DNA from: Sabellastarte sp. h YS-2021
Lineage: Eukaryota; Annelida; Polychaeta; Sabellida; Sabellidae
NCBI GenBank assembly: GCA_964017235.1
Contig: OZ024935.1
Span: forward strand, 88,751,052-88,815,051
Direction: 5' to 3'
DNA length: 64,000 bases
The position numbers and the translations under genes are program-made. Below the pieces are notes generated by a model, which searched no databases, was not told where the DNA came from, and saw only the letters and a list, made by a program, of their open reading frames with translations. Positions 13,885 to 60,041 of this stretch are shown in pieces. Every line of letters begins with the position of its first letter. The stretch's first letter is position 1.

Positions 13885-14030
13885 AGGGAAGCAGAAGAAG
13901 CCCAAAGAGAAGGAGCAGGAGGGGCATGGTGGCGGCAGAGAAGTGCCCCGTCATGGCCTGGGTGTCTCGCCTTGAAGAATATGTAGACGGCGAGTTTACC
14001 CGAGTCTGGGCTGCCATTGGCCGCCACTAA
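13885..14030 (+). pseudogene. Terminal exon copy 1 (inverted duplicate)
   Basis: The copy reads RSPKRRSRRGMVAAEKC, then SRLEEYVDGEFTRVWAAIGR and a TAA. The frame is intact, but the acceptor 'tttcag' of the 19.57 kb exon is replaced by 'gcatg', so normal splicing into it looks lost. Upstream 13,360-13,884 is an inverted match to the intron at 19,570-20,120. A 146 nt near-identical second copy lies 1,048 bp downstream. Confidence 0.6.
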
Positions 14031-14264
14031 CCCCTCGTCCAGGTGTGTGTCAACCCCCCCCCCCAACCTTGTAATAGCGGGCGAATGATTCAAGCGATGA
14101 CTGGACCGTATACTGAAAGAAGGTTTTATGCTGTAAATGTCAGTGTGTTTAGTTTTTATGTCGTCTCCTGTTCTCTGTGAGTGGTCACCATTCAACATGG
14201 AGTCTATTTGACTTGATTTGACTAGATCCAAAAGAGACGCATGTCTCAGTTTTGTGCAAGACAG

Positions 14265-14705
14265 CCAGGGGGAGAAGGGCATGGTGGCAGCAGAAGGATG
14301 CCCCTTCATGGATAATGTGACTCTCTCAGAAGACTATGTCCATGATTTTGTATTAAATGCTTATTATGCTCTGTTTTGCAGGGCAGTCATCAAGGGGGGT
14401 ATCCAGAAGAGGGAGAGGCATGGTGGCAGCAGAGGACTATCCATCCATGGCCAGAGTGACTCGTCTGGAGGACTATATACCTTTGTATTTGATGTGTGCT
14501 ACTTGCATGCTTTTTCAGAGCAAAGCAGTCCAAGTGAGACACCTGGGGGAAGAAGGAGGAACTCGCCTAGAGGACTATGTCCATGGATATGTTATAAATG
14601 TGTGCTACTTATGTTCTGTTTCTGAGGGAAGCTGTCAAAAGGAGGTACCCGGGAGAAGGAGAGGGATTGTGGCTGCAGAAGAGTGTCAATCGACAGCCTG
14701 GGTCA
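14265..14705 (+). repeat. Decayed terminal-exon cassettes in tandem
   Basis: Four related blocks follow each other. Each resembles RRGRGMVAAEECP plus RVTRLEDYV, followed by a short spacer ending in a 'tgttctgttt' or 'ctttttcag' acceptor-like tract. 'ggcatggtggcagcag' recurs at 14,278 and 14,418, a truncated unit lies near 14,560, and another starts near 14,660. Together they look like a small tandem array of last-exon copies with mini-introns, now partly out of frame. Confidence 0.45.
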
Positions 14706-14932
14706 TTTGACAGTTTGGAGGATTTTGTCACTCCAGTTAGAATGTTGCCCCTTTTCCCAAAATAACCATTTCATGTAAATGTGGAGGCATATGTCAAAAA
14801 GGAAACCAGTGATTTGTTGCATAAAAAACAGAGTTAGATAAAGCTGTCTGATAAATGCTGCCTAGGTCTCTGATCTGATAAAACATGGAAAATTCTTCAA
14901 AATTAAAATTGCTTTGTGTTAGTCCATGCATG

Positions 14933-15078
14933 AGGGAAGCAGAAGAAGCCCAAAGAGAAGGAGCAGGAGGGGCATGGTGGCGGCAGAGAAGTGCCCCGTC
15001 ATGGCCTGGGTGTCTCGCCTTGAAGAATATGTAGACGGCGAGTTTACCCGAGTCTGGGCTGCCATTGGCCGCCACTAA
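14933..15078 (+). pseudogene. Terminal exon copy 2 (inverted duplicate)
   Basis: This is almost base-for-base the same as copy 1, including about 80 bp of upstream intron from 14,848 on. It keeps the frame and stop (15,076-15,078) and the same damaged acceptor, so the duplication came after the acceptor change. Confidence 0.6.
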
Positions 15079-15253
15079 CCCCTCCTCCAAGTGTGTGTCA
15101 ACCCCAACCTTGTAATAGTGGGTGAACGATTAAGACACAAATCACCTGAAATGAGTGATGAAATTATAATTTATATGTCAATATTTTATAGTTTTTTCTT
15201 GTGTTCTTGATTTATATTTCATATATGAATAATATAGACTATGAACCAAGCGA

Positions 15254-19426: not shown

Positions 19427-19569
19427 TTAGCGGCGGCCAATGGCTGCCCAGACCCGGGTGAATTCGTCATCTACGTATCGCTCAAGGCGAGACACCCGGG
19501 CCATGGCGGGGCAGTTTTCCGCCGCCACCATGCCCCTCCTCCTCCTTTTTGGGCTTCTTGCTTGTCCCT
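19427..19569 (-). CDS. Terminal exon with stop codon
   Basis: This exon has 143 nt of coding sequence entered in phase 1 after 'ctgattttctgtttcag'. It reads GQARSPKRRRRGMVAAENC, then MARVSRLERYVDDEFTRVW and AAIGRR before TAA at 19,427-19,429. The RRRR cluster is a possible nuclear signal or basic cleavage site. The same C-terminus is kept in two plus-strand copies (stops at 14,030 and 15,078), with the frame intact in both, which supports it as coding. No convincing AATAAA was found just downstream. Confidence 0.6.
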
Positions 19570-22500: not shown

Positions 22501-25500
22501 TGCCGTCATAAATTCATCAAGAAAATAAAATGAAGACTGGATTCTAGATTAACTACCAGTCATCAAAACAGGCAAAACAAGACCACTGCCGCAGTGTGTA
22601 TCTCCTGCCAAGCATTGCCGCTGCAAGTGGCAAAAATTGAAATTTTTCCCCTAGCCACAGGACACTCCTGTACTACCCTGCAGATCAAAAATTCGCTTGA
22701 AATCGCTCTATCTCTTACCGTTTGAGATATTTTCAATGTTTTATTTTCTGCTTAAATCCAAGATGGCCGCCAAAAGTGACTAAAATTGAAATTTTTCCCC
22801 TATGCATAGGATACCCTTGAACCACCCTGTGGGTCAAAAATTCACTCAAAATCGCTCTATCTCTTACGGTTTTCTAGATTTTGTGATTTTCAGAGATTAT
22901 CACTAAAAGTAGCAATAAAGTAGCCATTACTCACTAGTACATTGAGCAACAGGTGTGAAGCTTAAAAATGTCACAGTTCACTAAAAAGTAGATAAACAAC
23001 ATATTTGAGAGAAATTGTGTAGCTGCAATACTTTTGAAGCTATAAGCCATTTACTCATTATGGTTACCATTAAAAATTGACAAAGTAGCTATTACTCACT
23101 TAGCTATGGAGATACACTTCCAAACTACTGACCCTGTTGTAGCTGTGGAGAAAGTAAAGTACCTGAACAACATATTGGAACAAAATACTCTAAATGCAAT
23201 AATTTGAGAGTTATAAGTCATATAATTATTTTAGGTAAAAGTGCTATTACTCACTCAAAAGTAGGCCACAGTTCAACAAACCCCCAAAATATTGAAGAGC
23301 GTAAAAATTCATTAGGACAAGTAATTTACCAAAAATGTGTAACTGTAGTAGTTTCAGAGAAAACTGTGTCACACACTCACGCACGCACGGACGTACGCAC
23401 ACACATGGTGCAAATTATAATCTCCCGCCGGCGAGATAAAAATCCACCTGATAATTGTGGTACATTTTCCCCAAGCCAATAGAATGAGTGAAACTCACCA
23501 TCATATGTCTGCACGGGCACTCGTGCACGTTTGCTGGAAGAAGGAAGAATATATCCTTCCTCTAAGAGGGCCTCTGCCTCTCGTTTCCTAGGACTCCTAG
23601 GAGGCGAATTCCCTTCCAATGATGCGGCTGGAGGGGGGCTAGGTGGATCGGCCGTTGCAGCTGGGCCATCTGTAATAACAATAGAAAGCATTTAAATAAA
23701 GTCACCTGAGCCTTGGTATGGCTGTAATGATATCATTCCATCTTAAAGCATTACTGGACATCAGAAACCCATTCTCATCTTTGTGTTAATAATATGTACG
23801 CATGCGTGATGTCAATAAGGTTAATTTATTAATCATCCGATGGACTTTCTCGACCTATCCCCTCCCCCCTATCCCGCCCCTTTACATCATTATAAAGGCA
23901 ATTTTACAGAATATCTGTTTTCAGTGTATTAAAACCCATCCTAAAACTACAGAGGAAGCATAAGTTATAAATTGAACTTTAGATTCAGTGGTACGCCTAT
24001 TTTTACAACCCATTCTTGGTATTTTTTCTAATTTTCGATTTATTTTACTTATTCTTCATACAAAACTGTGGATACTGAAAATAAAACAACCATTAGAACA
24101 ATTCGTCATCTGACTGTCATTTTCAACTCATTAAAATCAAATATTTAACTAAAACAAGGGAAATGGACAGAATCTTCACAAATGTAATCAAGTATAATCC
24201 AATAACCGTTTGCAAAATACTCCCCTCACCCAACACCATGCTTTACCTTAGCTCAGTTCAGATTGGTTGACTTGTTCATTACTTTGACCGCAGGGGGAAA
24301 CCAAGGACTTTCTGTTATACCATTTTTGGTTTTTATGACTAGCCGGTGAATTTGTAAAATACTGTAAAAAATTCTCATCAGTGTAATTACTTATATCTCA
24401 CTGACTCCTAATCCTGTTTTGTATATTAACAGCCATCGACAAAAATTGTTACTGATGCCACCCAGCCTCAGTCATCCCCCATTCAGGATGTCTTCTGTAC
24501 AGATCAGTCAGGAACTTTTCCAGTTCAAAAGAGTGCATTTGATTTCTGAGGGGAGTTTTTTGTAACTGTCTAGTCTAGCTCAAGCTAAGGCTCAAGAGAT
24601 TAACTGTACTAACTGAATGTAATACGTTACCCTTGCACTAGCCTGCACCAATATTGTTCAACCAGTTTTTTTTTTTTTTTTTTGTAATATATCCTCACGG
24701 GGAATTTGACACGATTGGTATAATTATCAATATTTGGAGTAATGTTATAACCTAAAAATATACCCAGTCTTAAATATTTTAGCTGCATATTCAAAATATA
24801 AAGTAAAATTTATACGATGAATTTCCAAATTATCAAGTATCTCATCATCCAGCATTTTGTTGTACATACAGCCCACATGTCCATGTGACAGTTTTGGTAC
24901 TTTTTGAAAAATTCCAAACAGAAATGGTTAACAGATTAGTCCACAGTTAAGGCAACCTGCTACCCAGCTACAAGAATTATGGTAATCATTTTAGCCTTCA
25001 TTCAGACATGTATCATTGCTTTTCTGTGTTTGTAATTACAATCAAAACCAGTAACGTCTTTGACGCACTTCAAATCATGATCAATTGAGTAAATAAAACT
25101 TACAGAAAAACAACGAAGAAGGGTCATGCGAGGGACTCGCCCTCCACCACTCTCCCTCACCTTCCTAAAAAACAGAAGACAAATGACACTAAGACACAAA
25201 GACAGTAATAATGGCATTAAACTACAGGACATGGCCAAATGTGTAGAGATTGTTTTAAGTTTTAAACCAGTAACAATTCATCAGTATAGACACACAAACT
25301 ATAAAATTTTATTTTTAAGTGCAAGCCTCGAAAGAGCTGGCGCCTCTATAAGATCACTTTTTTTTTATCTCCGGACTTTTATCAGCTTTGGCTTAGCGTG
25401 ATGAGTATTTGTCTGTTCACTGAAGTTAAGCAGCAATGGGCTATGTTAGTACTTGGATGGGTGACCGTCTGAGTTCTACACCAGCTGTGGGATGTGTTTG

Positions 25501-28500
25501 AGTTGAAATTTCTTTGTGTAGCCAGACTTTCATAAATTCTACTGCACTACTCGTGTCTCTGATGGCTTTGCGCTCACACTAGGCGACCAAAACACCTTTT
25601 GGCCTTGTTTCTCTTTAAATATACAAATACAAGATTATATTTTTTTCCTAATTTGAAGTGTTTCTGACATAGATTTTTATTATTCTGCACTTTTTGAAAT
25701 TGTGTTCAGGGATATTTTTTGCAAGATGGTATTTAAATTTAATACATAACAATAGGAAGAGACCTCAAATCTCACAACAAACACTCGAGTAAAATGGCTA
25801 AAAAGGTTCCTATATTCTGAAATATTATTAATGAGTCTACAGATATATCCTTCTCATAATTTAATTACAATATTCTTTCACATTTGATGCATTTCAGCTA
25901 CTTTATAAGTTGTAAAACTTGTAACATGTGAAAATATAAAGCGGTCTATTTTATGGGTGATACTTGTGGAAGTAAACAAGTCAGATCTTTCCAAAACAAG
26001 GAATTCAGGGACATTTTTTGACTCGCAGCATTCATGTTTAACTCATGATTGTATTGTAGATTTACATTCTGCACAGTATCACCTTACTACAGGACTCAAG
26101 TGCCATTGGATATGACTGGCATTCCTCTGACTGAGAGACAAGAGTCTCAGGGATGACCATTTATTAATGTCCCTGAGTTCAGTTTTAACAAAGGATCAAG
26201 GTTTAAAACTTAAAAGACTTTCGGCTTAAACAAAGGCTAAAAATCAGTGGTCTTACAGATTTTACAAAGCAGATAATTCTAAGGCTTGACCTTGAATAAG
26301 GGGCCCCAAGGTAAAATCTGACCACATCAGATTACTAGCCCATGATTTCCTATAGGTTGGCTTCACATTCCAAGGCTCTAGGACCAATAATAAGGGAGAT
26401 ACAAGCACTTTTCATGACTGACAAAGAAATGCCTGTGGCGGCCATCTTGTTTTTCAAAATGAAGCCAAAAATATTCCCAGGCAAGACTTTGTAACATAGT
26501 CTCCCTTAATGTTTTTAGTGTCACCCACTAGGTCACAGTTGCAGAGACCAGCACTGTAGCATTAAATGCCTGCAAAACTATTCAACAGATTTTCCTCATG
26601 CGACCTATTTAACCACACAGGATGCCTTGTTTGATTCACTGGACACCCTGATGTGTTAGTTCTAGGTTCCGTTTGGATTTCTTCAAAACATAACACATCA
26701 CCAGTTATTGGATTGAAAGCCACAGCTGCAGATATGAGAAATGGCAGTGTTTGCCAAAGTGAAAAGCATCTGCGAATCTGTGTAAAAAAGGCAACACTTG
26801 CCACATGTGTGAGTCTTCTAGTGATCTGTACAGATGTTCACACTCGTTAACAAAATAAGAAAAAAAAAATTTTCGGCCTTTTTGTCTCAGTACAAACACC
26901 TCCAGTGCACCATGCATTGACATGTGTGACTTGCGTCACTTCAGAGTGATTTAGATTTATTTGTTGTTTTACGTCGCGTTCAACAGCCAGGGTCATATTG
27001 CGACGGGTAGTTTACAGGTGGAGGAAACCACCGGGCATTGGCAAGTAACTACCAACTTTCCAACATGAAGCGCCCGGCCAGAGATTCAAACCGGCGGCCT
27101 CAGAGGTTGGAGGCGAGAACTCTAACCGCTACACCACCGAGCCCCCTCATTTCAGAGTGAAAGTGAAACCAATCTTTCATACATGTTACACTGGTACACC
27201 TTGTGGGTGTGTTGCTTACTGTTTGTACAGGATTACGTCTTGTGCTAGAACTTAGTCTATAATAGTACTTACTAGTCGCCCTCTCCTGGTTCTTTTTTCA
27301 GGGGGTAGGGGGGACCCCACGGAAGGCCTCTTTCTTGGTGATTTGCTCTGTAAATAAGATGCAAGAAAATATCAAATAATGAAAGCATGGAAGGCATTTT
27401 ATGAGAGGTCTCAAGTGTGAAACAACAGACTAAGCCTCAACTTTGTACTGTTGGTTTTTTTTCAGCTGAGACTAATCTCATTGAGAAAAGTGTCCAGACT
27501 TTCCACACAGTCACAGCAACTAGTATTTGATTTATGGTCTGTGAGTGACCCTATACTTAATGTATTTTGGTAGTGTATGTTTTAAGAATTTACTGCCCCT
27601 TAGCAATATCATCCACTCCCCCTTTCCCTTCATGCCTATACATTTTAACATGCGAGAGCTTAAGAGATTTTTCATACATTTTTAAAAAGCCACTAGCTTG
27701 AAATGCTGCATATAAATCTTGGCTTATTAACCTAAAAGCTTTTAATTTAGTAGACTACAAAAACATGAAATACCTCCAACCGGACAGGTATGCCTACATA
27801 TTACTTGAAACCATAAACAAAAACATATCTCAGTTAAGATAAAGCAATCCTTTGGACTTTCTCAACATATTTGAGAAAGCAATACAACACTTGGGTGTCA
27901 GACCAAATCTGATAATACATTTGATTTTAGATATTTTACGAAACTGCCATCCAGTAAAAGATCAAATATGTCCTCAAACTTGAGACCAAAACAAGACAAA
28001 ATTTGGTCTTCGCAAGTTTACTGGAAACAACCACTTTAGTTTAGGTTACTCTGTAGTACTTAGTGGTTTTAAATTTTCTGGTGAATAGGGCAACCCTTTG
28101 GATTAAGTAAAACCTTAAACAAAAAAGTCTCAATTGACCTTTTTATTAATGTAAGTAAATTATTTCAGTAAGTCTTTCATTTCATTAAATGTTATACCAC
28201 CACTCAGCCTGGCTGACCTTGAAGGAGGGGCCCAAAGTCAAATGTGACCACATCATAAGATTCACAGCCCATGATTTCCCACAGGTTGGTTTCATAATGC
28301 AAACCTCTAGGACTAAGGGAGATATAAGCACTTTTCATGACTGAAAAAGAAACACCCGTGGCGGCCATCTCTCTTTTTCAAAATGAGGCCAAAAATATTT
28401 CCGGATGCTATCCGGTGGATACAAAGATTTTACAATTGGAAACATTTTGATTGATATTACCTCCTAATACCAGTCGGTAATAAAGCTAAGATCCCCCCTA

Positions 28501-46168: not shown

Positions 46169-46212
<44 letters not shown>

Positions 46213-52200: not shown

Positions 52201-55200
52201 AATAGTTTTCCAATTACAACTGATTTACTCAATAGTGAGAACTTCAAAGTAGCTATCCAATGAGCCACTGGTCTTGAACTTCACTAAGTTATAGCTGACC
52301 CCAAAATAGGTGAATAACACATGAAACAAAATACTCAAAATGCAATAATTTTCAAGTTATAAGTGATTTACTCAACAGTGATAAGCTCAAAGTAGCTATT
52401 ACTCAGCTATGCAATGAGCTACAGGTCTGAAATTTTACTATGTTATAGCTGACCCAAAAGTAGGTGAACAACATATTTATACAAAATTCTCCAAATGCAA
52501 TAGTTTTCAAGTTACAACTGATTTACTCAATAGTGAGAACCTGAAAATAGCTATTGCTCAGCTATGCCATGAGCTATAGGTCTGTAATTTCACTATGTCA
52601 TAGCTGACCCAAAAGTAGGTGAACAACATATTTTAACAAAATACTCCAAATGCAATATTTTTCAAGTTACAACTGATTTACTCAACAGTCAGTACCTGAA
52701 AATAGCTACTGCTCAGTTGTGCCATGAGCTACAGGTCTGTAACTTCACTATGTTATAGCTGACGCAAAAGTAGCTGAATAACGTATTTACACAAATTTCT
52801 GTAAATGCAATAGTTTTCCAATTACAACTGATTTACTCAACAGTGAGAACTTCAAAGTATCTATTACTCAGCTATCCAATGAGCCACTGGTCTGGAACTT
52901 CACTAAGTTATAGCTGCCCCCAAAATAGGTGATTAACACATGAAACAAAATACTCAAAATGCAATAATTTTCAAGTTATAAGTGATTTACTCAACAGTGA
53001 TAACCTCAAAGTAGCTATTACTCAGCTATGCAATGAGCTACAGGTCTGAAATTTTACTATGTTATAGCTGACCCAAAAGTAGGTGAACAACATATTTATA
53101 CAAAATTCGCCAAATGCAATAGTTTTCAAGTTACAACTGATTTACTCAATAGTTAGAACCTGAAAATAGCTATTACTTAGCTATGCAATGAGCTACATGT
53201 CTGAATTTTTACTATGTTATAGCTGACCTAAAAGTAGGTGAACAACATATTTAAGCAAAACACTGTAAATGCAATAGTTTTCAAGTTACAACTGATTTAC
53301 TCAATAGTGATAATCTGAAAATAGCTATTGCTCAGTTGTGCCATGAGCTACAGGTCTGTAACTTCACTATGTTATAGCTGACCCAAAAGTAGCTGAATAA
53401 CATATTTACACAAATTTCTGTAAATGCAATAGTTTTCCAATTACAACTGATTTACTCAATAGTGAGAACTTCAAAGTAGCTATTACTCAGCTATGCAATG
53501 AGCCACAGGTCTGGAACTTCACTAAGTTATAGCTGACCCCAAAATAGGTGAATAACATATTGAAACTAAATACTCTAAATGCAATACTTTTCAAGTTATA
53601 AGTGATTTACTCAACAGTGATAACCTAAAAGTAGCTATTACTCAGCTATGCCATAAGCTACAGGTCTGAAATTTTACTATGTTATAGCTGACCCAAAAGT
53701 AGGTGAATAACATATTTATACAAAATTCTCTAAATGCAATAGTTTTCAAGTTACAAGTGAGTTTACTCATGATGGAAGTTACTGAAAAGCCCAAAAGTAG
53801 CTATTACTCAGTTAGCTATTGAGACAGACACCCAAGTTACTCACCATGTTGTAGCTATGGAAAAAGTAGCTGAACAACATATTTTAACAAAATGCTCTAA
53901 ATGCAACACTTTTCAAGTTATAAGTGATTTAGTGCATGATTTCATGAATTTTAATGCATTAAAAAAATTTATTAAAAAAAAAATAAGACAGATCCAGGTC
54001 TCATACTCACACAAGAAATCTACCTCTGGCCTAGTACATATATGCAAGATATGAGAGAAATCCTTCAAATAGTCACTGAGAAAATTGTGATAAAGTGTTT
54101 CAATTTTCACACTTTTGGTGGGGGTACCTCCCTTGTAATGTCTCTAGCAAACAGACGAACAGACAGATTTGCATGCCTTGAACAATTTTTCATCCTCGAT
54201 AGATAAGGTATCTTTTAAAAAAAACAGCATGTCTCTAGGCCTTGTAGTTTTGGAGAAGAAGTTGTTCACGCGGACGCGTACGCAGATGCGTACGCGGACG
54301 CCGCAGAGTGATGACATAATGTCAGCTGACTGACAAGTCAGCTGACATAAAAAACGATGTATAAGCCAAATGGTAAAATTTAAATCCTGGTGTTTAGTGC
54401 TGATCTCAAGGTCAATATCAGTCTGCTATTTTGTTTTTCAGGTGATAAAATATACATCACCTTAGAACTAAAGTTACTCTTAATTTCTGATGTTTTTCTT
54501 ATAAAAATAACAGCCGTCGGAAAGTTTTACAATTTCAGATTTAAAACATGTTAAAATGGATCATCTAAGCTGAAATTTAACATCATTTTAAAGTGAAACT
54601 CATGAAAACAAAGAACAGTTTTGTCCAAGACATTGCTCCAGAAGCCCTAAAATCTACAAGATTATGGGATAAAAATTTGTTATTTCCAATACTTTAAATT
54701 CTACCACCCCCCCCCCCCCCCCCCAACTATATGTGCAGTCAATTGAGATGCTGGTTGCAAAGTGTCGTAATGGTTTTCAACTGAATGGTCTTAATAACAA
54801 GCTACCAGTGAAATAAATCTCTGCCCTAATTGAAGTTGGCTTAATAATTGATCCATCAATATTGAAATCACAATGTATGAGGCAAAAATTACCACTCAAA
54901 ATCTTTCATTTCCGCAGAAAAAAGCTACAGAAATTTTGCGACAGAAAAGCTAGATTTGACACATTTATCAATTACATGCAACATTATTTAACCCTGGATC
55001 AAGCTGGCTTCAATTCATTTGCAATGCATTCAAAACCGAATACCAGCACATTGTCATCACTAACCTAAACCTAAACTAGTTCTATTAATGAGCCATCTCT
55101 TACCATTCTTTCATGCTAGTTGAAAACTCACCTTTATAAGCACTTTGCTTGGTTTGTCTAATCCAGGTTTCTTCAAACTCTCCCATCGTAACTTGGTACA

Positions 55201-58200
55201 TAAAACCTCATCGATCAAATCAGTCAGTTCTGAAGAATAAAAACCAATGTATAACACATATGTGCAACATATTGCACTTACCGATACACTTAAAACAATT
55301 ATTCAAATTTCCAGGCACATCAACACTTATTGTATACAACAATAACAAGACTTTAAGCACAAGAGACATTTTCGCCCTCCCAACAATTTTCTGTTTTCCA
55401 TCAATGCTACCAGCATCTACTTGATCAAATTTCAATTATGTTAAAATTTTCATAAAAGACTAATACCATGCAAATTCCTGTCACACATCAGTGTGATACC
55501 TAGGTCACTGTGTTCCATACTGTAAACACAAGCCACATATATGAATATTTACCTCCTTTGGGACTGATTTCTGGTGAAACGACTTTCATGTTTTGTTTTC
55601 AAGTGCAAGCCTCAATAGAGCTCACGCTTTTAGATCACTTTTTTATGTCTACCGATTTAATGAAATTTACCCATGCATTCTGAATTACACTCTCCAATAG
55701 CCAAAAGGACACGTCCTTTTGCCCATGCATATGTCCTTTTGTCTCTGGACTTTGATGACATTGACAACATGCCAATAGCTAAAAGGGCACATGTCCTTTT
55801 GGCTTTTGCCCATGCATACGTCCTTTTGTCTCCAAACTTTAATGGCATTGACAACACCTGTGCATTCTGAATTTCCCTCTCTTGCTCTCCAATTGCTAAA
55901 AGTCCTTTTGCCTTTTTCCCAGACATATGTCCTTGTATCGGACTTTTGGAAATTGTGGCACAGAGTGATAACCATTTGCCTGCCCACTAAAGTTAAGTGG
56001 CAATGGGCTCTGTTAGTACTTGGATGGGTGACCGTCTGAGTTCAGGACCAGCTGTGGAATGTAACTTTGAATTTCTTTCTGTTACAAGACTTTCGTAAAT
56101 TCTAGTGTGCTACTCATGTCTCTGATGGCTTTGTGCTTGCGCTAGGGGACCAAAACACTGACCTCGTTTTTTTGTTGCATCTGGTCCACTAAGCCAGGAT
56201 TTTGATTCAGGTAGGATGTGTTTACGACAGAATATAGATGGCATTTTGACGATGCGATATTTTTTTCAACAGGTCAGAAATCCTCTCACAAGCTCTCGCA
56301 TGCTAAAGTGAAATATACACTAAATGAGGGGAGAATTTAGGTGGCGTTGGGGTTTTAGTTTACAGGACACCACAATTCCAAACATGCACTTCCAAAACAG
56401 GCGGTTTCTTTGAAGAGTTGTTTGGACGGCCTGGGGAAATAGTTTTCAACACCATAAAATATAGAAGTAGTGAAACAGTACAAAGATTGATTTTCTGAAT
56501 TAATTTTCAATCTTCCAAATTTGTATTTCCTGACTGTCATACAATGCCTCTTCTGTTTTGTGAACATTCTATTATGATAAAAATAGCATCAGAGATGCCT
56601 GTACCTCACAGCTGCGGGAAATAGTTTTCAACACCATGAGATGTAGAAGTAGTGAAACAGTACAAAGATTCGGATAATTTCAGAGCATTGTCAGTTGTAT
56701 AAAGGTGCAAAAATGTTTACGTAGAGAAAATAACATCCAAGAGAAAGAAATGTATGTAAAGACAAAGTATTAACAAGACAAGTCAATAGCAAGATGACCA
56801 CATTAATCAGAAAACTAAAATTATGAAACTGTAGAATTTATTAACTGGAGAATAACTGTCAAATGGAATAGCAAAATTATGTAAAAGTACATTATAATAA
56901 TCAGTTGCAGCAATCCATATGTTTTTGCTCATAGGGGAAAACATGTCTCAAATATGGCAGGTGAACACACTTCGATTCAGCCACAGTTACAGGTCACACC
57001 ATCATTAACACCATAACCAATGTATTTGTATTGGGTTTTTATACTCTACACAATATCTCCATATACTACATGATGCAAATACAGCCCAAGCTCTCAAGTT
57101 ACTTGCATTCCCCTTGCTGACAGAAGCTCAAAGATGACCATTTATTAATTTTCTTGAGGTTCTTTAGCCTGCTACTGGGTAAAGAACCCAATGAACAGAG
57201 GACAGCCATTTTTAAGTGGTCATCCAACCCACTAAGTATCTATCTGTACCTGGGTTGGTGGCTAGGCCACAGATGCAGAAATCATGTCTCTACCATGTCC
57301 CCTAAGTGTCAAACTTTTATACTAAAGTCTTACAGAATCCAACAATTAGCCCAGACAAGATTTTATAACTCATGGTCATGTTGCACACCTACACCCCCTA
57401 AAGCAATGTCCCTACAAAGTATCAACTTACTATACTTTATGGTTTCAGATATATAGCCAGGACAAGATTTTTCATGGTCACTCTAGGAAGGTCACAGGTC
57501 AAATCAAGGTCACACCATGACATGGCATATTACAACCCCAACCAATGTCTCTACCAAATATCAACTTCCCACACCTTATTGTTTTCGAAATATTGTCTGG
57601 ACAAGATTTTATAGGTCAAGGTCACCAAGGCAAGGTCAAAGGTTAAATCAAGGTCACACCATCAGACTTTACACCTAACAGCCCTAACCAATGTACCTAC
57701 CAAGTATCAACTTCCTACACCTTACACTTTCCAGGATATACCCCGGACAAGATTTTATAGATCGGGGTCACAATGACAAGGTCAAAGGTGAAATGAAGGT
57801 CAGAGACCATGATGTTGCACACCTACAACCCCCAGCCCATGTTCCTACCAAATATCAACTTCCTACACCTTAATTTTAGCCGACAATGCCTGGACAAGAT
57901 TTTTGAATGCAAGGTCAGTATAGCAAGGTCAAAGGTCAAATCAAGGTCACACCACAATGTTACACACCTACACTGCCTAACCAATGCCCCTTCAAGTAAG
58001 GGTATGTCCTACACCTTACAGTTCTGAGATACAGCCCAGACAAACTTTTCCTGACACCCGCCCACCCATCCAGACACCATGGGTGAAAACATTAAGGGCT
58101 GTCAGGGTAAAAACCAGAGGCAATATTGCTTTTGTGTTTGCATAAAGAATCCTGAAACACATCACTTTAAGTAATCTGCAATAAATGTTTTAAAAATTTA

Positions 58201-60041
58201 ATATGTAAAGGGTAATATCCAATATTTTGGACTAAATAATTTTGTATGTAAGTGATGTTAAAGTGCTTTGTCATAAAGCAAATATTATCAAGCTAAGTGC
58301 CATTACTTTGTAACAAAATGTATTTTTTCATGAATTTCTAGTCAGTAGTCCCAAATACAGTAGAACCACTATTGACCACATTGGGAAAACTGCAGATTTG
58401 GTCAAATAAACAGCCTTAAAACATTAAGAGGCATGTCAGTACAAAAACTAGGAAAAATACAACAGGGGAAGTGACAGAGGTCATAAAAGAGGACAATAGG
58501 CGGAAGGTTAAAGGTCAAAGTTCAGTTTTAAACATCTCGGACCACAGCCAGGAGAATGGACAAAAGAAAATCTAAAAGTCTGTCACAATGTCAGTAATGT
58601 TTCTGAATATTTTCCTGTTCCATGCCAGACTGAATATATCTTGTCTGTAAAATGTCAACATTTTGAAACATTGTACTGACCAGCCACTGCTCCTCCTTCC
58701 GCTCCTCTTCCTCCTCCTTCCGCTCCTCTGCCTCTTGCATCTCTCCCCAAACCTCTCGTTCCTCCACCGGCTCCTCTGCCTCCTCCTCCTTCCGCTCCTC
58801 TGCCTCTCACATCTCTCCTCAAACCTCTCGTCTCTCTACTCAAACCTATTTAAATGCAATTTAATTGTTAATGAGAAAACATTCTTAAAAGTTTCACTAC
58901 TTCTATAGCATTAGAAAGCTTCTCATATGAATTCCTAGCTAGTATTCTCAATAAAGTAGAAGCATTATTGACCACATTGTGAAAATTACATCTTTGGTCA
59001 AATAAACAGCCGTAAAATATAGAGGCAATTTAGTATAAAATCAAGGGAAAAATACAACAGGGAAAGTGAAATTGAGGCCATAATAGTGGACCATAGGAAA
59101 GATAAAGGTGAAAGTCTGGTTTTTAACATCCCGGTCAACAGCCAGGAGGATGGATAAAAAGTCTACTAAAGAGTATTCTCACAATGTCAGTAATTCTTTG
59201 TGGACATTCTCCTTTTCAATGACAGTATATCTTGTCTATAAAATATCTTGAAACATTCACTGTACTTACCAGCCACTCCACCACGCACCCCACCAACTGC
59301 TCCTCTACCTCTAGCTCCTCTCACATCTCTCCCCAAACCTCTAGTCCCTCCTCCCGCTCCTCTGCCTGCTCCTCCTTCCGCACCTCTGCCTCCTCCTTCC
59401 GCTCCTCTGCCTCTCACATCTCTCCTCAAACCTCTCGTCTCTCTACTCAAACCTATTTAAATGCAATTTAACTGTTAATAAGAAAAAATGTTCTTAAAAA
59501 TTTCACTACTTCTATAGCATTAGAAAGCTTCTCTTATGAATTCCTAGCTAATATTCTAAATACAGACTGAAGCATTATTGACCACATTGTGAAAACTACA
59601 TCTGTGGTCAGATAAACAGCCATGAAACATAAAGAGGCATTTTAGTTTTAAAATGAGGGAAAAATACAACAGGGAAAGTGAAAGTGAGGCTATAAAAGTG
59701 GACAATGGGAGGAAGGATAAAGGTCAAAGTCTGGTTTTTAACATCCTGGTCAACAGCCAGGAGCATGGATAAAAAGTCTACTAAAGAGTGTTCTCACAAT
59801 GTCAGTAATTTTTCCTGGGCAGTCTCCTGTTCCAGACAGAGCATATCTTTTCTGTAAAATGTCAACATTTTGAAACATTCATTGCACTTACCAGCCACTC
59901 CTCTGCCTCCTCCTTCTGCTCCTCTGCCTCTCACATCTCTCCTCAAACCTCTCGTTCCTCCTACCACTCCTCTGTCTCCTCCACCTTCCGCTCCTCTGTC
60001 TCTCACATCTCTCCTCAAACCTCTCGTCTCCCTACTCACAC
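19427..60041 (-). CDS. Predicted multi-exon gene, unknown family (span of all exons)
   Basis: This entry spans a gene assembled from 14 minus-strand blocks listed separately below. Lengths in order are 150, 183, 165, 98, 36, 48, 486, 441, 165, 30, 75, 61, 171 and 143 nt. Phases run 1-1, 1-1, 1-1, 1-0, seven symmetric 0-0 exons, 0-1, 1-1, then 1-stop, so every junction keeps one open frame. Donors are GTAAGT, GTGAGT or GTCAGT, and most acceptors have a good pyrimidine tract. Seven adjacent symmetric phase-0 exons plus exact closure on a stop are hard to get by chance. The product is mostly low complexity: RG-rich, then acidic, then Ser/Pro/Lys/Arg-rich. I do not recognise a family and infer no function. 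Lys/Arg clusters could be nuclear-localisation signals, or basic processing sites if the signal-peptide start at 55,369 is used. Introns are full of mobile elements. The start and some exons may lie outside the window. Confidence 0.6.
20730..20867 (+). CDS. Small ORF with RG motif and acidic tail
   Basis: The 45-codon ORF starts MMNGEAESRGRGRGSFQPS and ends FSDNEDDWD before TAA. The frame is open upstream to 20,676. A short RG box followed by a tail ending in Asp-Trp-Asp looks like a real protein C-terminus and could be the last exon or fragment of a gene or retrocopy. No clear acceptor is present, and the family is not recognised. Confidence 0.35.
   Translation: MMNGEAESRGRGRGSFQPSLGNWPASGNFDQDPDASFSDNEDDWD
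20868..21735. other. Unannotated stretch
   Basis: No gene seen. A 9-10 bp inverted repeat 'aattcacgaggtcgtgaatt' lies at 21,702-21,721, and 'ggtatgtaatat' occurs twice (21,674 and 21,732). Confidence 0.4.
21736..22086 (+). mobile_element. Possible solo LTR
   Basis: The block starts TGTAATATGATCACAC and ends CTAGTTACA, resembling TGTAA...TTACA termini of Ty3-type LTRs. It holds a CCAAT box (agccaatcaaagg), a short GC hairpin (ctgagcaggcagagcctgc) and AATAAA near 22,036. No clear target duplication was found. Confidence 0.35.
22584..23437 (+). mobile_element. Hairpin-ended element 'G'
   Basis: The 5' end is the hairpin CACTG-ccg-CAGTG (22,584-22,596). Inside are two units of about 151 bp ('gaaatttttcccct' at 22,638 and 22,789), diverged 155-bp-type monomers, and a GC-rich ACGCACGG run. 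The 3' end is the hairpin ATCTC..GCCGGC..GAGAT (23,420-23,437). The plus-strand copy of the locus at 13,165-13,215 lacks it exactly, giving an empty site. Confidence 0.7.
23499..23669 (-). CDS. Pro/Ser-rich exon, 171 nt, phase 1-1
   Basis: This exon encodes GPAATADPPSPPPAAS, then SPRKREAEALLEEGY and SSSKRARVPVQTYD. The acceptor follows 'tttctattgttattacag' and the donor is GTGAGT, which falls inside a longer conserved open stretch (the ORF reads on through GEFHSFYWLGENVPQL). Both halves of this exon recur, split and in swapped order, in the plus-strand copy at 12.8-13.2 kb. Read-through of the GTGAGT would add about 20 conserved codons, so an extended form cannot be ruled out. Confidence 0.6.
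23700..24432. other. Intron sequence, no feature
   Basis: 23,700-23,830 is shared with 12,913-13,050 in the inverted copy. The rest shows nothing recognisable. Confidence 0.5.
24433..24549 (+). CDS. Candidate plus-strand terminal exon
   Basis: After 'ctcctaatcctgttttgtatattaacag' there are 38 codons and a TGA. The block reads PSTKIVTDATQPQSSPIQDV, then a CTDQSG-containing tail and KSAFDF. The acceptor is good and composition is protein-like. It would belong to another gene on the opposite strand inside an intron of the minus-strand gene, but no upstream partner exon was found. Family not recognised. Confidence 0.35.
   Translation, partial: PSTKIVTDATQPQSSPIQDVFCTDQSGTFPVQKSAFDF
25104..25164 (-). 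CDS. Internal exon, 61 nt, phase 0 to 1
   Basis: This exon encodes EGEGEWWRASPSHDPSSLFF plus one base. The acceptor is 'cttctgttttttag' and the donor is GTAAGT. It shifts the gene from phase 0 to phase 1, which is what the next exon at 23.67 kb needs. A phase-2 reading of the same block is also open, so the frame is decided only by its neighbours. Confidence 0.5.
25317..25625 (+). mobile_element. 5S-rRNA-derived SINE, copy 1
   Basis: 25,411-25,492 matches the inner part of 5S rRNA, including 'tgaagttaagcagc' and 'gttagtacttggatgggtga' (A box, intermediate element, C box), so it keeps a type 1 pol III promoter. The 3' part continues into 'tctctgatggctttg' and 'accaaaacacctttt', which also follows the 56 kb copy, so the unit is a SINE and not a 5S gene. 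It starts 'aagtgcaagcctc' as the other copy does. Confidence 0.75.
25630..26270. other. Unannotated intron sequence
   Basis: AT-rich, no supported gene. 'gggatgaccatttattaatg' near 26,151 is a fragment of a repeat also seen at 57,133, 29,965 and 34,858. Confidence 0.4.
26270..26520. repeat. Fragment of 147-bp repeat family 'A'
   Basis: 'agcccatgatttcctatagg', 'gctctaggaccaataataag' and 'gtggcggccatcttgttttt' match units at 28.2-28.45, 37.9-38.7 and 50.8-51.8 kb. Confidence 0.75.
26950..27146 (-). mobile_element. tRNA-headed SINE, copy 2
   Basis: Same family as the copy at 1.4 kb: minus-strand A box (GTGGTGTAGCGG), B box (GGTTTGAATC) and 'gcgacgtaaaacaacaaata' tail. Target duplications are tcacttcagagtga (26,936-26,949) and tcatttcagagtga (27,147-27,160), differing by one base. 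It lies in an intron of the minus-strand gene. Confidence 0.85.
27273..27347 (-). CDS. Basic Ser/Pro exon, 75 nt, phase 0-0
   Basis: This exon encodes SKSPRKRPSVGSPLPP followed by EKRTRRGRL. The acceptor follows 'gcatcttatttacag' and the donor is GTAAGT. The PRKRP and KRTRRGR clusters look like nuclear-localisation signals, or processing sites if the protein is secreted. In the phase-1 frame the block has a stop, so phase 0 is required, as the neighbours predict. Confidence 0.55.
28190..28450. repeat. Fragment of 147-bp repeat family 'A'
   Basis: One and a half units matching the array at 50.8-51.8 kb, ending near 'ctatccggtggatacaaaga' as in the larger elements. Confidence 0.7.
28555..28584 (-). 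CDS. Micro-exon, 30 nt, phase 0-0
   Basis: This exon encodes TATPEEARQM. The acceptor 'gtattctag' follows two long T runs (plus-strand A runs at 28,597-28,620), a very strong pyrimidine tract, and the donor is GTAAGT. Phase 0 on both sides fits its neighbours at 30.6 and 27.3 kb. It is too short for homology by itself. Confidence 0.55.
28673..29826 (+). mobile_element. Hairpin element 'B', short copy
   Basis: Starts with an imperfect hairpin (agtgcccgtgaaagggctct), carries about four diverged 155 bp monomers (28.8-29.4 kb) and the family tail (29.46-29.83 kb, 'aaagatccaggtcctatact'), and ends 'tgtcagctggatgacaagtc'. It lies about 90 bp upstream (minus sense) of the 30 nt exon. Confidence 0.7.
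29840..30611. repeat. Intron portion of the acidic cassette unit
   Basis: Near-identical in part to 34,745-35,400 and partly to 35,930-36,240, and inverted-similar to 12,272-12,760. It includes 'gatgaccatttatcatt', 'taacctgccact' and 'aggtcacctgataggcaac'-type blocks. Confidence 0.8.
30612..30776 (-). CDS. Acidic cassette exon C (non-repeated member)
   Basis: This 165 nt exon is phase 0-0. It encodes VERDDQEDRGDQEDEIVRED and continues through an E/D-rich segment to EVDERPSETGTE. It shares that ending and its downstream intron with exons A and B but lacks the GxxEDDG array. The donor is GTAAGT. The acceptor 'gcactaaatcacag' lies in sequence that matches the tail of the hairpin element family seen at 43.45 and 53.93 kb, so this splice site seems to be built on inserted DNA. 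Confidence 0.6.
30847..34350. mobile_element. TIR element 'F' with internal tandem array
   Basis: Perfect 12 bp terminal inverted repeats ATATCCCCAGAC (30,847-30,858) and GTCTGGGGATAT (34,339-34,350). Inside, 32.7-34.15 kb holds about four units of 320-350 bp ('gggtctctgtggg' near 32,777, 33,441 and, diverged, 33,796). A GC-rich 'acggcggcggcgcgacggac' precedes the right end. It has no coding capacity and lies within a family-B tail (left piece 30,780-30,820, right piece from 34,360). Confidence 0.7.
31096..31142. repeat. (CAAT)n microsatellite
   Basis: Interrupted ATCA/ACCA tetranucleotide run inside element F. Confidence 0.85.
34355..34745. repeat. Family-B element tail, orphan copy
   Basis: Almost identical to 29,470-29,850 ('aaaaagtatgaaagatccag' onward), so it duplicated together with the acidic exon unit. 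ORFs here are repeats of the same noncoding tail. Confidence 0.8.
35402..35842 (-). CDS. Acidic repeat cassette exon B
   Basis: This 441 nt exon is phase 0-0 with the same acceptor and donor as exon A. It starts RVEEGQEEISVARERRDS, has the Arg/Glu block, about 12 units of G-A-R-E-D-D-(D)-G changing to G-P-R and then G-P-Q units toward the C-terminal end, and ends EVDKRPSETDIE. The ordered change from AR to PR to PQ units fits growth by local slippage. Flanking introns are nearly identical to those of exon A. Confidence 0.6.
36244..36729 (-). CDS. Acidic repeat cassette exon A
   Basis: This is a 486 nt exon, phase 0-0, with acceptor 'tttgtctttttcag' and donor GTCAGT. It opens RVEEGQEEVSVARERRDS, passes through an Arg/Glu-rich block (RRRESARRRES-like), then carries about 15 units of G-(A/P/V/T)-(R/Q)-(E/D)-D-D-(D)-G, and ends EVDKRPSETDIE. 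Repeat units are mostly 21 or 24 nt, so length changes keep the frame. It is a near-identical duplicate of the exon at 35.4-35.8 kb with more repeat units. The repeat is also open in other frames and on the other strand, which is an artefact of its period. Confidence 0.6.
36870..37580. repeat. Repeat family 'E', about 140 bp units
   Basis: Units built on 'aaggtcaaaggtcaaatc', 'accatgac', 'caacttcctac' and 'gagatatagcccggacaag', about five diverged copies. Confidence 0.8.
37616..43876 (+). mobile_element. Hairpin element 'B', large copy (6.3 kb)
   Basis: The 5' hairpin is AGTGCCCGT-ga-ACGGGCACT (37,616-37,635). It is followed by 147-bp family-A units (37.9-38.7 kb), about 30 monomers of about 155 bp (38.8-43.45 kb), a tail (43.45-43.85 kb) with GC-rich 'cgcggacgcgtacgc', and the 3' hairpin TGTCAGCTGACT-gaca-AGTCAGCTGACA (43,849-43,876). 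It is noncoding. Structure fits non-autonomous pearl/HINE-like elements of bivalves by design; sequence identity to them is not tested. Confidence 0.75.
38800..43450. repeat. 155-bp satellite-like array with higher-order structure
   Basis: The monomer contains 'atgcaatagttttcaagtta', 'agctattactcagctatgcc' and 'actatgttatagctgaccc'. A distinct monomer type (acacaaatttctgtaaatgc) recurs at 40,151, 40,771, 41,544 and 42,164, spacing 620, 773 and 620 bp (4, 5 and 4 monomers). Private variants repeat with an exact 1,393 bp shift. Confidence 0.9.
45334..46039. mobile_element. Insertion of about 0.7 kb in element C, possible LTR
   Basis: The array is broken between 'gggctattttatg' and 'cccataagg' by unrelated sequence that starts tgcgttggcg and ends cggcaacgc, an inverted match of about 8 bp. 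AATAAA occurs near 45,940. Could be a solo LTR or a DNA element; family unknown. Confidence 0.35.
46158..46234. repeat. Long interrupted poly-G run
   Basis: About 70 G in 77 bases, in place of the 'gggggtc' of the 158-bp units. Likely slippage in the genome or an assembly artefact. Confidence 0.85.
46740..47045. repeat. Family 'E' repeat units
   Basis: Two units with 'gtccctacc', 'ggtcaaaggtcaaatctcgg' and 'cacagcc' end, directly after element C. Confidence 0.75.
47150..47370. repeat. Dispersed repeat, copy 1
   Basis: 'aatagcatcagagatgcc' to 'agaaagaaactgcatgtaaag' matches 56,575-56,765, and part of it recurs at 56,430-56,490. Confidence 0.75.
47700..49300. repeat. Family 'E' arrays, two blocks
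   Basis: 47.70-48.60 kb has units with 'tatcaacttcctacacc' at 47,905, 48,174, 48,308 and 48,456 (135-150 bp apart). 48.70-49.30 kb is an older, more diverged block. The first ends 'accatgggtgaaaacaatac', as at 58,078 and 47,015. Confidence 0.85.
49517..49564 (-). CDS. Micro-exon, 48 nt, phase 0-0
   Basis: This exon encodes GRAMMEFFQQVFDVSL. The acceptor is 'gtgattttacag' and the donor is GTAAGT. It continues the ordinary-composition segment of the two preceding exons and ends it. The next in-frame exon found is the acidic cassette at 36.7 kb, across an intron of about 12.8 kb filled with repeats. Confidence 0.6.
49920..50120. repeat. Dispersed repeat, copy 1
   Basis: 'cttttgttttgtgaatacaa' to 'cttacttagatctaaggt' and 'ttgtagaatac' matches 62,840-63,010. 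Confidence 0.8.
50497..50532 (-). CDS. Micro-exon, 36 nt, phase 0-0
   Basis: This exon encodes FLISQFDLKKEL. The acceptor is 'cctctcatttcag' and the donor is GTAAGT. Joined to the previous exon it gives KVLIK-FLISQFDLKKEL, a plausible amphipathic helix. A hairpin-ended repeat element begins only 28 bp upstream of this acceptor (5' hairpin at 50,560-50,579). Confidence 0.6.
50560..54347 (+). mobile_element. Hairpin element 'B', 3.8 kb copy
   Basis: Perfect 5' hairpin (50,560-50,579), four or five family-A units of about 147 bp (50.83-51.85 kb), about 13 monomers of 155 bp (51.9-53.9 kb), tail, and 3' hairpin (54,320-54,347). Same order as the 6.3 kb copy; the length difference is mostly monomer number. 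It starts 28 bp from the 36 nt exon. Confidence 0.75.
54348..55131. other. Intron sequence, no feature
   Basis: A poly-C run of about 22 bases lies at 54,703-54,724. Nothing else recognised. Confidence 0.4.
55132..55229 (-). CDS. Internal exon, 98 nt, phase 1 to 0
   Basis: Only one of the three frames is open, and it gives a helical-looking segment with LTDLIDEVLCTKLRWESLKK and a DKPSKVLIK end. The acceptor follows 'ggtttttattcttcag' and the donor is GTGAGT, both strong. It joins in frame to the 36 nt exon at 50.5 kb. It has ordinary amino-acid composition, unlike the low-complexity cassettes, so it is the best query for a homology search. Family not recognised. Confidence 0.65.
55282..55369 (-). 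CDS. Alternative first exon with signal-peptide-like start
   Basis: ATG at 55,369 is in good context (A at -3). It opens 29 codons that begin MSLVLKVLLLLYTIS, a basic residue followed by a Leu-rich core like a signal peptide, then a Cys-x-x-Cys (NNCFKCI). The frame ends in phase 1 at a GTAAGT donor (55,281 downward). The next exon at 55,229 accepts phase 1, so the two join in frame. Total coding length from this start to the stop is 1,842 nt, exactly 614 codons. The oddity is the intron, only 52 nt, which is very short for a mollusc. This start competes with the RG cassette exons, which enter the same exon in the same phase. It could be chance. Confidence 0.35.
55602..56170 (+). mobile_element. 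5S-rRNA-derived SINE, copy 2, with internal repeats
   Basis: The copy has the same start ('aagtgcaagcctc'), 5S core (about 55,966-56,060) and tail as the 25.3 kb copy. Between the start and the 5S core lie about three diverged repeats of roughly 110 bp containing 'catgcattctgaatt', 'aaaaggacacgtcctttt' and 'catatgtccttttgtctc'. These are absent from copy 1, so they were inserted or amplified. Confidence 0.7.
56430..56770. repeat. Dispersed repeat, copies 2 and 3
   Basis: 'gaaatagttttcaacacca' followed by 'tagaagtagtgaaacagtac' occurs at 56,436 and 56,618, matching 47,207. Confidence 0.75.
56950..58110. repeat. Family 'E' array
   Basis: Five or six units of about 136-150 bp with 'tatcaacttcc' at 57,569, 57,705 and 57,854. 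Interrupted at 57,120-57,260 by a fragment of the 'gatgaccatttatta' repeat. Confidence 0.8.
58681..58845 (-). CDS. RG-rich cassette exon 3 of 3
   Basis: This 165 nt exon is phase 1-1 with a GTCAGT donor. It contains RG and GGG runs, with RGLGRDARGRGAEGG in the middle, and ends in a short Ala-Val-Ala segment when joined to the next exon at 55.2 kb, which accepts phase 1. RG/RGG-rich segments often bind RNA or are arginine-methylated in other proteins. That is family knowledge and not shown here. Confidence 0.45.
59270..59452 (-). CDS. RG-rich cassette exon 2 of 3
   Basis: This 183 nt exon is phase 1-1 with a GTAAGT donor and the same 'atttaaatag' acceptor as its neighbours. It encodes SRETRGLRRDVRGRGAEGGG-type sequence with an internal second copy of the GTRGLGRDV motif. 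It sits in the middle 0.6 kb repeat unit. The three copies differ in length by whole codons only (150, 183, 165 nt), which suggests the reading frame has been kept. Confidence 0.45.
59892..60041 (-). CDS. RG-rich cassette exon 1 of 3
   Basis: This is a 150 nt symmetric exon, phase 1 in and phase 1 out. It encodes an Arg/Gly/Glu-rich stretch with motifs such as SRETRGLRRDVR and RGAEGGG. The donor is GTAAGT (59,891 downward). The acceptor follows 'atttaaatag' and has a poor pyrimidine tract, which is the weakest part of the call. It is the most upstream member of three tandem copies. Exons further upstream are probably outside the window. An alternative reading is a coding-looking repeat rather than an exon. 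Confidence 0.45.

What the first reader, a model, noticed from the sequence alone, without database searches (positions are those of the whole stretch)
19427..60041. A 14-exon minus-strand gene hidden between repeats
Fourteen blocks with matching splice sites agree in phase at all 13 junctions and close on a stop. Coding pieces include segments of ordinary composition (55.2, 50.5, 49.5 kb) and low-complexity cassettes. The protein is not one I recognise and may be lineage-specific.
Basis: partly seen in the sequence, partly recalled or inferred. Interest (0 to 1): 0.8.

Follow-up and report, generated by a model that had tools for sequence, protein, structure and literature searches.

The report
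Clam gene built from duplicated exons
The window holds most of what looks like a real clam gene, matching no family searched, for a disordered and probably nuclear protein assembled from repeatedly duplicated exons; copies of its end modules are scattered and tandemly arrayed elsewhere in the same genome.

Summary
The finding is right in substance, but its main argument is weak and its limits are wrong. Phase agreement alone means little: shuffled sequence gives in-phase chains of about 34 blocks with loose splice sites. With stricter sites the minus strand stands out: longest chain 11 exons, against a mean of 3.4 (max 7) in 50 shuffles. I recovered 13 of 14 blocks; the exon joining 27.3 kb to 23.6 kb is unresolved. 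Coding constraint is shown for three exons (55.2, 23.5, 19.5 kb) against genomic copies, in the predicted frame and in neither other sense frame. The gene starts outside the window, about 26 kb upstream of its first block: a start-codon exon and two more Arg-Gly cassettes lie there on the same strand. A collinear, partly decayed copy lies 83 Mb away on the same contig. The 23.5-kb exon type forms a tandem array on C5 with the same splice phases. Pfam, NCBIfam and PDB searches with exon peptides gave no accepted match. Best reading: a new family of mostly disordered, probably nuclear proteins growing by duplication of phase-symmetric cassette exons. Expression and function are untested; one transcript is likely, not proven.

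The parts
59892..60041 (-). Arg-Gly cassette exon (phase 2/1); third of five cassettes, two more lie upstream outside the window
   Evidence: Shares acceptor block GCATTTAAATAG|G with four other cassettes: 5 copies on the minus strand, 0 on the plus strand in 264 kb; donor 6.8, acceptor only 0.3
59270..59452 (-). Arg-Gly cassette exon (phase 2/1)
   Evidence: same acceptor block; 3' flanking intron 87.5% identical to that of the 59.9 kb cassette
58681..58845 (-). Arg-Gly cassette exon (phase 2/1)
   Evidence: same acceptor block; weak sites, acceptor 1.3, donor gtcagt 2.6
55132..55229 (-). Exon 'e' (phase 2/0), ordinary composition, LTDLIDEVLCTKLRWESLKKPGLDKPSKVLIK
   Evidence: Acceptor 4.8, donor 8.1. 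The copy at C11:5343928-5344025 (found by DNA search) has equal length and phases; pS 0.79, pN 0.21, p=2e-6 in the predicted frame; the other two sense frames carry stops and show ratios of 1.1-1.2
50497..50532 (-). 12-residue exon (0/0), FLISQFDLKKEL
   Evidence: Splice sites and phase only (4.9, 5.2). No convincing copy found in the paralogous stretch
49517..49564 (-). 16-residue exon (0/0), GRAMMEFFQQVFDVSL
   Evidence: Splice sites and phase only (5.0, 5.2). No convincing copy found
36244..36729 (-). Arg-rich then acidic repeat cassette exon (0/0)
   Evidence: Acceptor 4.8, donor 3.6; 84% identical to the 35.4 kb cassette; openness not informative
35402..35842 (-). Second copy of the acidic repeat cassette exon (0/0)
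30612..30776 (-). Third, diverged acidic cassette exon (0/0), tail EVDERPSETGTE
   Evidence: Shares the tail with the other two; donor 7.8, acceptor 2.0. Only itself matched in the genome by protein
28555..28584 (-). 10-residue exon (0/0), TATPEEARQM
   Evidence: Acceptor 6.9, donor 6.7. In the C11:5.34 Mb copy the acceptor and TATPEAARQ are kept and the donor is lost
27273..27347 (-). 25-residue basic exon (0/0), SKSPRKRPSVGSPLPPEKRTRRGRL
   Evidence: Acceptor 5.5, donor 3.7. Both splice sites are kept in the C11:5.32 Mb copy, whose coding part is broken
23499..23669 (-). Exon 'q' (2/1), SPPRSPRKREAEALLEEGYILPSSSKRARVPVQTYDG
   Evidence: 35 matches in the own genome at E<=10, 13 at E<=0.001, itself included; pS 0.51, pN 0.17, p=2e-4 against the local inverted copy, not in the other two sense frames
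19427..19569 (-). Terminal exon 't' with stop, GQARSPKRRRRGMVAAENCPAMARVSRLERYVDDEFTRVWAAIGRR*
   Evidence: 20 matches at E<=10, 13 at E<=0.001, itself included; pS 0.36, pN 0.07, p=2e-4 against the local inverted copies; stop read
12207..12318 (+). Inverted local copy: tail of the acidic cassette exon
   Evidence: blastn 74-77%
12791..13165 (+). Inverted local copy of exon q, in two pieces (12791-12893 and 13012-13165) out of order
   Evidence: blastn 89% and 79%
13895..15089 (+). Inverted local copies of the terminal exon (13895-14043, 14943-15089; fragment 14412-14470)
   Evidence: blastn 86%, 86%, 76%

Best explanation
The locus is a real protein-coding gene of about 67 kb on the minus strand. 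Its coding part starts near window position 86,479 (outside the window) and ends at the stop at 19.4 kb, with 16 coding exons found and at least one more required. The protein has an N-terminal Arg-Gly-rich arm made of one start exon plus five duplicated cassette exons, a short stretch of ordinary composition, probably helical (the 55.2, 50.5 and 49.5 kb exons), an Arg-rich and acidic repeat section made of three duplicated cassette exons, and a basic C-terminal end with three S-P-[KR]-[KR] motifs, KR-rich likely nuclear signals and a final short helix (helices and signals judged by eye). It belongs to a multicopy family in this genome whose members grow by duplicating cassette exons of symmetric phase (2/1 or 0/0), which can be added or lost without breaking the frame. 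Most likely way of working (inferred): a largely disordered nuclear protein in which the Arg-Gly arm contacts RNA, the S-P-[KR]-[KR] and KR modules contact DNA or import factors, and the opposite-charge repeats give multivalent association. Shown: exon structure by splice signal, coding constraint in three exons, upstream exons, family copies and arrays. Inferred: one transcript, nuclear location, nucleic-acid binding.
For: Strict splice-site enrichment and chain length against shuffles. Coding constraint in exons e, q and t, with the other two sense frames as controls. C5 array: 34 differences in 1,320 codon positions against 83 in 1,200 flanking positions over 10 pairs of 5 copies; 14 synonymous, 20 non-synonymous. 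Upstream cassettes with the same acceptor block, and a start-codon exon MSSRDTRDRGETVRGRVGARGRDA ending in the right phase. 14 exons join into 821 codons without a stop, and the last two join and end on a stop. Collinear copy at C11:5.298-5.344 Mb. Exon q copies with the same phases 2/1 at C18:69 kb, C6 and C19:129 kb and in 5 of 5 copies read from a C5 array of 8.
Against: The join between 27.3 and 23.5 kb is unresolved. The Arg-Gly cassettes have weak acceptors (0.3-1.3), and of 14 exons scored only 9 have a donor above 5. The start exon's donor scores 2.7. Exons of 12 and 16 residues rest on splice signals only. The only collinear relative found is decayed, with frameshifts, stops and lost donors. 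A q copy at C18:3.865 Mb ends in another phase (2/0), and the C7 copy scanned (L026, one of five) gave no 2/1 q exon. Exon e was found at only two places, both on C11, while q and t occur at many, so the parts may not always travel together. No expression data. Function is inferred from composition and short motifs that are recalled, not tested.
Confidence: 0.62

Rival explanations
1. Two neighbouring genes rather than one: an Arg-Gly / acidic-repeat gene (86-27 kb) and a separate q-t gene (23.7-19.4 kb).
For: The only phase break lies exactly between 27.3 and 23.5 kb, with no good exon to bridge it. q and t occur at many places where e was not found.
Against: The same order and strand of the e, acidic, 28.5, 27.3, q and t exons is kept in the copy at C11:5.30-5.34 Mb. 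The inverted local copy also carries the acidic tail next to q and t. A start-like Arg-Gly exon was seen on the plus strand near q at C18, but in opposite orientation to that q, so it does not decide.
Confidence: 0.2
2. The window copy is itself a recently decayed member of the family: its exons were constrained in the past but no intact message is made now.
For: The collinear copy on the same contig and the local inverted copy are broken. One exon of the window model is missing. Cassette acceptors are weak, and 5 of 14 donors score below 5.
Against: All 16 exons found are open in the required frame.
Confidence: 0.13
3. The exons belong to a multi-exon transposable element rather than a host gene.
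For: Multiple copies, inverted and tandem, several near contig ends, among many repeats.
Against: The matches found are few (13 each at E<=0.001 for q and t, though the tool calls its counts lower bounds). Introns and their order are kept in the collinear copy. Pfam found no transposase or polymerase match in the exon peptides scanned. Terminal repeats and target-site duplications were not examined.
Confidence: 0.08
4. Artefact: a chance chain of open frames between repeats.
For: Loose chaining gives chains with as many exons in shuffled sequence; repeat blocks are open in several frames; the first scan with other cut-offs showed no strand contrast.
Against: Strict-site enrichment, frame-specific constraint in three exons, conserved splice edges in copies.
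Confidence: 0.03
5. The 55.2/50.5/49.5 kb stretch is a remnant of alpha-tubulin acetyltransferase (ATAT1/MEC-17).
For: Pfam PF05301 at E=0.015-0.029, profile 130-161 of 173. Local alignment to the clam's own ATAT1 exons scores 38, reached by 6 of 2000 shuffles.
Against: Far below the curated cut-off (about 15 against 27 bits). The paralogous exon shows no similarity: score 16, reached by 1766 of 2000 shuffles. The true gene lies at C11:55.78 Mb, with profile 126-173 in one uninterrupted exon, whereas here that stretch is cut by two introns. The own-genome family search did not find the window (3 matches, all at 55.78 Mb).
Confidence: 0.05

Closest known systems
RGG/RG-box (GAR) proteins (recalled class)
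   Same: Long Arg-Gly-rich arm, 56 RG and 24 RGG in the model; by composition it could work as a disordered RNA-contacting arm
   Different: No recognised RNA-binding or helicase domain in the peptides scanned; the arm is spread over six separate exons
SPKK-motif chromatin proteins such as sperm H2B variants (PMC9903204; start of abstract seen in a search listing only)
   Same: Three S-P-[KR]-[KR] motifs in the basic C-terminal part
   Different: No histone or linker-histone match; overall slightly acidic, 166 K+R against 193 D+E in the joined model
Genes that grow by tandem duplication of symmetric-phase exons (recalled class)
   Same: Two kinds of cassette with symmetric phase duplicated side by side in the window gene; q-type exons in an array of eight on C5
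   Different: Different cassette kinds are amplified in different copies; no known domain recognised
Alpha-tubulin acetyltransferase ATAT1 (PF05301)
   Same: A short DKPS..FL..L resemblance
   Different: Fails score, paralogue and intron tests

Membership tests
Alpha-tubulin acetyltransferase (PF05301) | Profile score above the curated cut-off | tested here: not met
   14.6-15.5 bits against 27
Alpha-tubulin acetyltransferase (PF05301) | Acetyl-CoA binding core of the GNAT domain present | tested here: not met
   Own-genome profile search finds the family only at C11:55.78 Mb, not in the window
RGG/RG-box proteins | Clustered RG/RGG repeats | tested here: met
   56 RG, 24 RGG in the joined model; six Arg-Gly exons over 86-58 kb
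RGG/RG-box proteins | RNA binding or Arg methylation | not testable with these tools
   needs experiment
SPKK-motif chromatin proteins | Repeated S-P-[KR]-[KR] motifs | tested here: inconclusive
   three motifs only
SPKK-motif chromatin proteins | Histone fold or linker-histone domain | tested here: not met
   no Pfam match in the exon peptides scanned, terminal exon included
Protein-coding gene | Frame-specific excess of synonymous change | tested here: met
   3 of 13 window exons tested: e, q, t; not tested for the other ten
Protein-coding gene | Spliced transcript | not testable with these tools
   no transcript data among the tools

The most novel reading that the evidence does not exclude
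A clam family of nuclear proteins, which I have not found described, in which three chemically different kinds of phase-symmetric cassette exon (Arg-Gly, acidic/Arg repeat, S-P-K-K/KR module) are amplified independently in different members, some as tandem exon arrays and several close to contig ends. Protein length, charge and valence would then evolve, and perhaps be spliced, by exon count alone, as might be expected of a chromatin or germ-line conflict system.
Probability: 0.4. Interest if true: 0.7.

Novelty: new variant of a known kind. Interest (0 to 1): 0.5.

Why it matters
If transcripts confirm it, this is a protein family that domain-based annotation does not see (no accepted Pfam, NCBIfam or PDB match for the exon peptides searched), embedded in intron-rich, repeat-rich DNA where gene finders often fail. 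Its cassette architecture gives a direct way to watch a disordered protein grow and shrink by whole exons. The contrast between the open window copy and its decayed collinear twin gives a pair for asking when and why such a protein is lost.

Tried and rejected
Phase agreement as evidence: rejected, since shuffles give as many exons with loose sites. First splice scan: its cut-offs lay near the maximum score and it gave 2 candidates on the minus and 3 on the plus strand; I rescaled weights and cut-offs and used those from then on. ATAT1 origin of the 55-49 kb stretch: followed because of a Pfam E-value of 0.019, then rejected on the paralogue, the intron positions and the own-genome search. Missing 0/1 exon: the block 25104-25164 looked possible, but the conserved paralogue segment starts just beyond it (25081 onward), so no support. 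Relatives of exon q among viral contigs: 522 pattern matches, none confirmed. PDB search with the q-t peptide: two weak rows at E 0.28 and 0.36 (RAP domain-containing proteins), taken as chance. Prior descriptions: one paper search on bivalve subtelomeric gene families (the first 8 of 999 papers seen, as a listing only) showed nothing about this family; no other search for it was made, so I do not claim it is absent from print. Species: the assembly has 1,785,957,881 bases; a hard clam genome paper whose text holds '1.79 Gb' is in the listing (PMC7831173, listing only), which suggests but does not establish Mercenaria mercenaria. Structure prediction was not run, because the spliced protein is not contiguous in the DNA and single exons are short. 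Rows left out of counts: identical copies were counted once and matches above E 1e-4 dropped, leaving 10 distinct q rows from 14 loci and 12 distinct t rows from 12 loci; pairs sharing fewer than 25 codons were left out (44 of 45 q pairs and 51 of 66 t pairs kept). Those copies were found by protein search, which biases the ratio downwards, so (copies located by DNA similarity) is the one I rely on.

Full report
WHERE. The window is G000:C11:88751052-88815051 of a 1.79-Gb eukaryotic assembly held in 647 contigs. I also read 120 kb upstream and 80 kb downstream of the window. Positions above 64000 below are in window numbering, i.e. beyond its right end.

IS THE CHAIN REAL? I scored acceptors and donors with generic metazoan weights (recalled, in my own script). 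A first run with cut-offs near the maximum score showed nothing: 2 candidates on the minus and 3 on the plus strand. After rescaling the picture changed. With loose sites, in-phase chains have as many exons in shuffles as in the real sequence (38 against 34.4 +- 4.2 in 20 shuffles), although the longest chain by length is longer (4,231 nt against 2,482 +- 392, max 3,259). With stricter sites the minus strand of 19.4-60.0 kb has 13 non-overlapping open exons (score sum >=7) against 5.3 +- 2.0 (max 12) in 100 shuffles and 2 on the plus strand. At >=9 the counts are 7 against 1.5 +- 1.3 (max 7) and 0. The longest chain has 11 exons by number (3.4, max 7, in 50 shuffles) and 1,989 nt by length (270, max 609); these were maximised separately. 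Part of the length comes from the two acidic repeat exons, whose openness is cheap. Of six 40-kb tiles of the 264 kb, both strands, the highest count at >=7 was 11, in a tile overlapping this locus. The best tile not overlapping it gave 10, in a stretch with transposon-like reading frames.

THE EXONS. From 60,041 down to 27,273 eleven join through ten junctions without a stop. 23499-23669 and 19427-19569 join in phase and reach the stop. Between 27.3 and 23.5 kb an exon with phase 0 at its start and 1 at its end is needed. Twelve weak candidates were listed; I accept none of them.

THE GENE STARTS OUTSIDE THE WINDOW. The Arg-Gly cassettes share the acceptor block GCATTTAAATAG|G. It occurs five times on the minus strand of 264 kb, never on the plus strand, and in none of 10 dinucleotide resamplings. 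Two of the five are at 83993-84283 and 76641-76862, encode TSRETRGGAVVTRGG... type repeats, have donor gtgagtac and the same phase 2/1. At 86407-86479 a start codon opens MSSRDTRDRGETVRGRVGARGRDA, ending with one carried base as the cassettes require, and its donor flank resembles theirs by eye. Its donor scores only 2.7. A similar beginning, MRDTRLRGGTRGVAAARGG, can be read in a copy on C18. The fourteen exons from the start to 27,273 translate to 821 residues without a stop.

CODING CONSTRAINT. The 55.2-kb exon has a copy at C11:5343928-5344025 found through DNA similarity, of equal length and phase. In the predicted frame 16.5 of 20.8 synonymous and 15.5 of 75.2 non-synonymous sites differ (p=2e-6). 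The other two sense frames show ratios of 1.2 and 1.1 with stops. One antisense frame mirrors the result, as expected when third positions line up. Exon q against the local inverted copy: 17.5/34.0 and 16.5/95.0 (p=2e-4). Terminal exon against two local copies that are nearly identical to each other, so not independent: 11.0/30.5 and 7.0/98.5 (p=2e-4). The other sense frames show no such excess. Copies found by protein search agree (pooled pN/pS 0.47 over 44 pairs for q, 0.44 over 51 pairs for t), but that way of finding them favours low ratios. The other ten window exons and the upstream ones were not tested this way.

FAMILY. All counts are lower bounds by the tool's own statement and include the window's own exon. 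Exon q: 35 matches at E<=10, 13 at E<=0.001, stops in 3 of 35. Terminal exon: 20 matches, 13 at E<=0.001, stops in 5 of 20. Exon e: itself and one copy. Acidic exon 30.6: itself only. Clusters lie on C5, C6, C7, C11, C15, C18 and C19 for q, and on C6, C11, C14, C18, C19 and, weakly, C20 for t. Those at C14 (57-80 kb), C18 (56-69 kb) and C19 (74-129 kb) are within 0.13 Mb of a contig start, C15 (223-402 kb) within 0.41 Mb, and C6 (142.93-142.99 of 143.65 Mb) within 0.72 Mb of an end. Others are not terminal: C5 126.5-126.7 of 155.0 Mb, C7 117.6 of 120.8 Mb, C11, C18 3.87 Mb and C19 54.3 Mb. On C5 eight q-type exons follow each other on one strand over 8.3 kb, none with a stop. In the five I read, each begins after ...cttttatag and ends at gtgagt with phase 2/1, VTPPPADRARQSPFRSPRKWENELLGGEVLPEGAKRKRTSAATY type, and the exons differ less than their flanks (34 of 1,320 against 83 of 1,200). 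Not every copy fits: the q copy at C18:3.865 Mb ends in phase 0. On C7 five nearly identical q exons are about 4 kb apart; their acceptor region appears to have shifted phase (my reading of the sequences; the one scanned gave no 2/1 exon).

COLLINEAR COPY. C11:5.298-5.344 Mb matches the window in order, introns included, in blocks of about 61-91% identity, some of them repeats. It is decayed: the Arg-rich exon has frameshifts and stops and lost its donor, the 28.5-kb exon lost its donor, the 27.3-kb exon keeps both splice sites but is broken inside, q is interrupted, and one of its two terminal exons has a stop. Within the window an inverted partial copy lies at 12.2-15.1 kb.

WHAT IT MIGHT DO. 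The joined model (926 positions, the missing exon left out) is 20% Gly, 16% Arg, 11% Asp, 10% Ala and 10% Glu and carries three S-P-[KR]-[KR] motifs near the C-terminus. Its exon peptides gave no accepted domain and no convincing PDB match. From this I infer a disordered nuclear protein with an RNA-contacting Arg-Gly arm and a DNA- or import-contacting basic end. That step rests on recalled properties of such motifs and is not shown. The weak PF05301 hint was tested and not upheld.

VERDICT. The interpretation as an unrecognised gene is supported. My confidence that a genuine coding gene or very recent gene lies here is about 0.9, that the parts form one transcript about 0.7, and that the proposed working is right about 0.3. 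The single figure given for the best explanation is a blend.

Noticed in passing
28999-29272, 38797-43300, 51909-53790, 63312-63947: Four arrays whose units (about 155 bp, GATTTACTCAAC...GTAGCTATTACTCAGC) look like one family, the largest with 29 copies, sitting in the introns of the proposed gene.
   Followed up: no
37885-38450 and 50828-51550; 47830-48489 and 57378-57986: Two further tandem-repeat families (about 146 bp, and about 137/146 bp), each present twice inside introns.
   Followed up: no
46161-46234: A 74-base run that is almost all G on the plus strand.
   Followed up: no
25311-25611: A 300-bp dispersed repeat in an intron: 38 long matches at 85-92% were among the scored candidates genome-wide, a lower bound.
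   Followed up: no
30001-30128, 34894-35021, 12614-12913: A repeated block (WTGGGMLTWPAKKFPNVG...SLGPIPSG in one frame) follows the acidic cassette exons, and a related one occurs beside the inverted q copy.
   Followed up: partly
about 182736-183998 in window numbering (upstream flank, minus strand): A 421-codon open frame with ankyrin-like repeats (by eye), perhaps the next gene upstream.
   Followed up: no
L050 (C5:126534900-126540000): Between the q-type exons of the C5 array lies another recurring short open block, VPLEQKKRRHQKCASQKDLEER type, listed four times with a possible donor.
   Followed up: no
C14:56875, C18:56465, C19:73755, C6:142993366: Four fragments of the terminal exon, each with one TAG and nearly the same score, suggesting duplicated blocks near several contig ends.
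   Followed up: no
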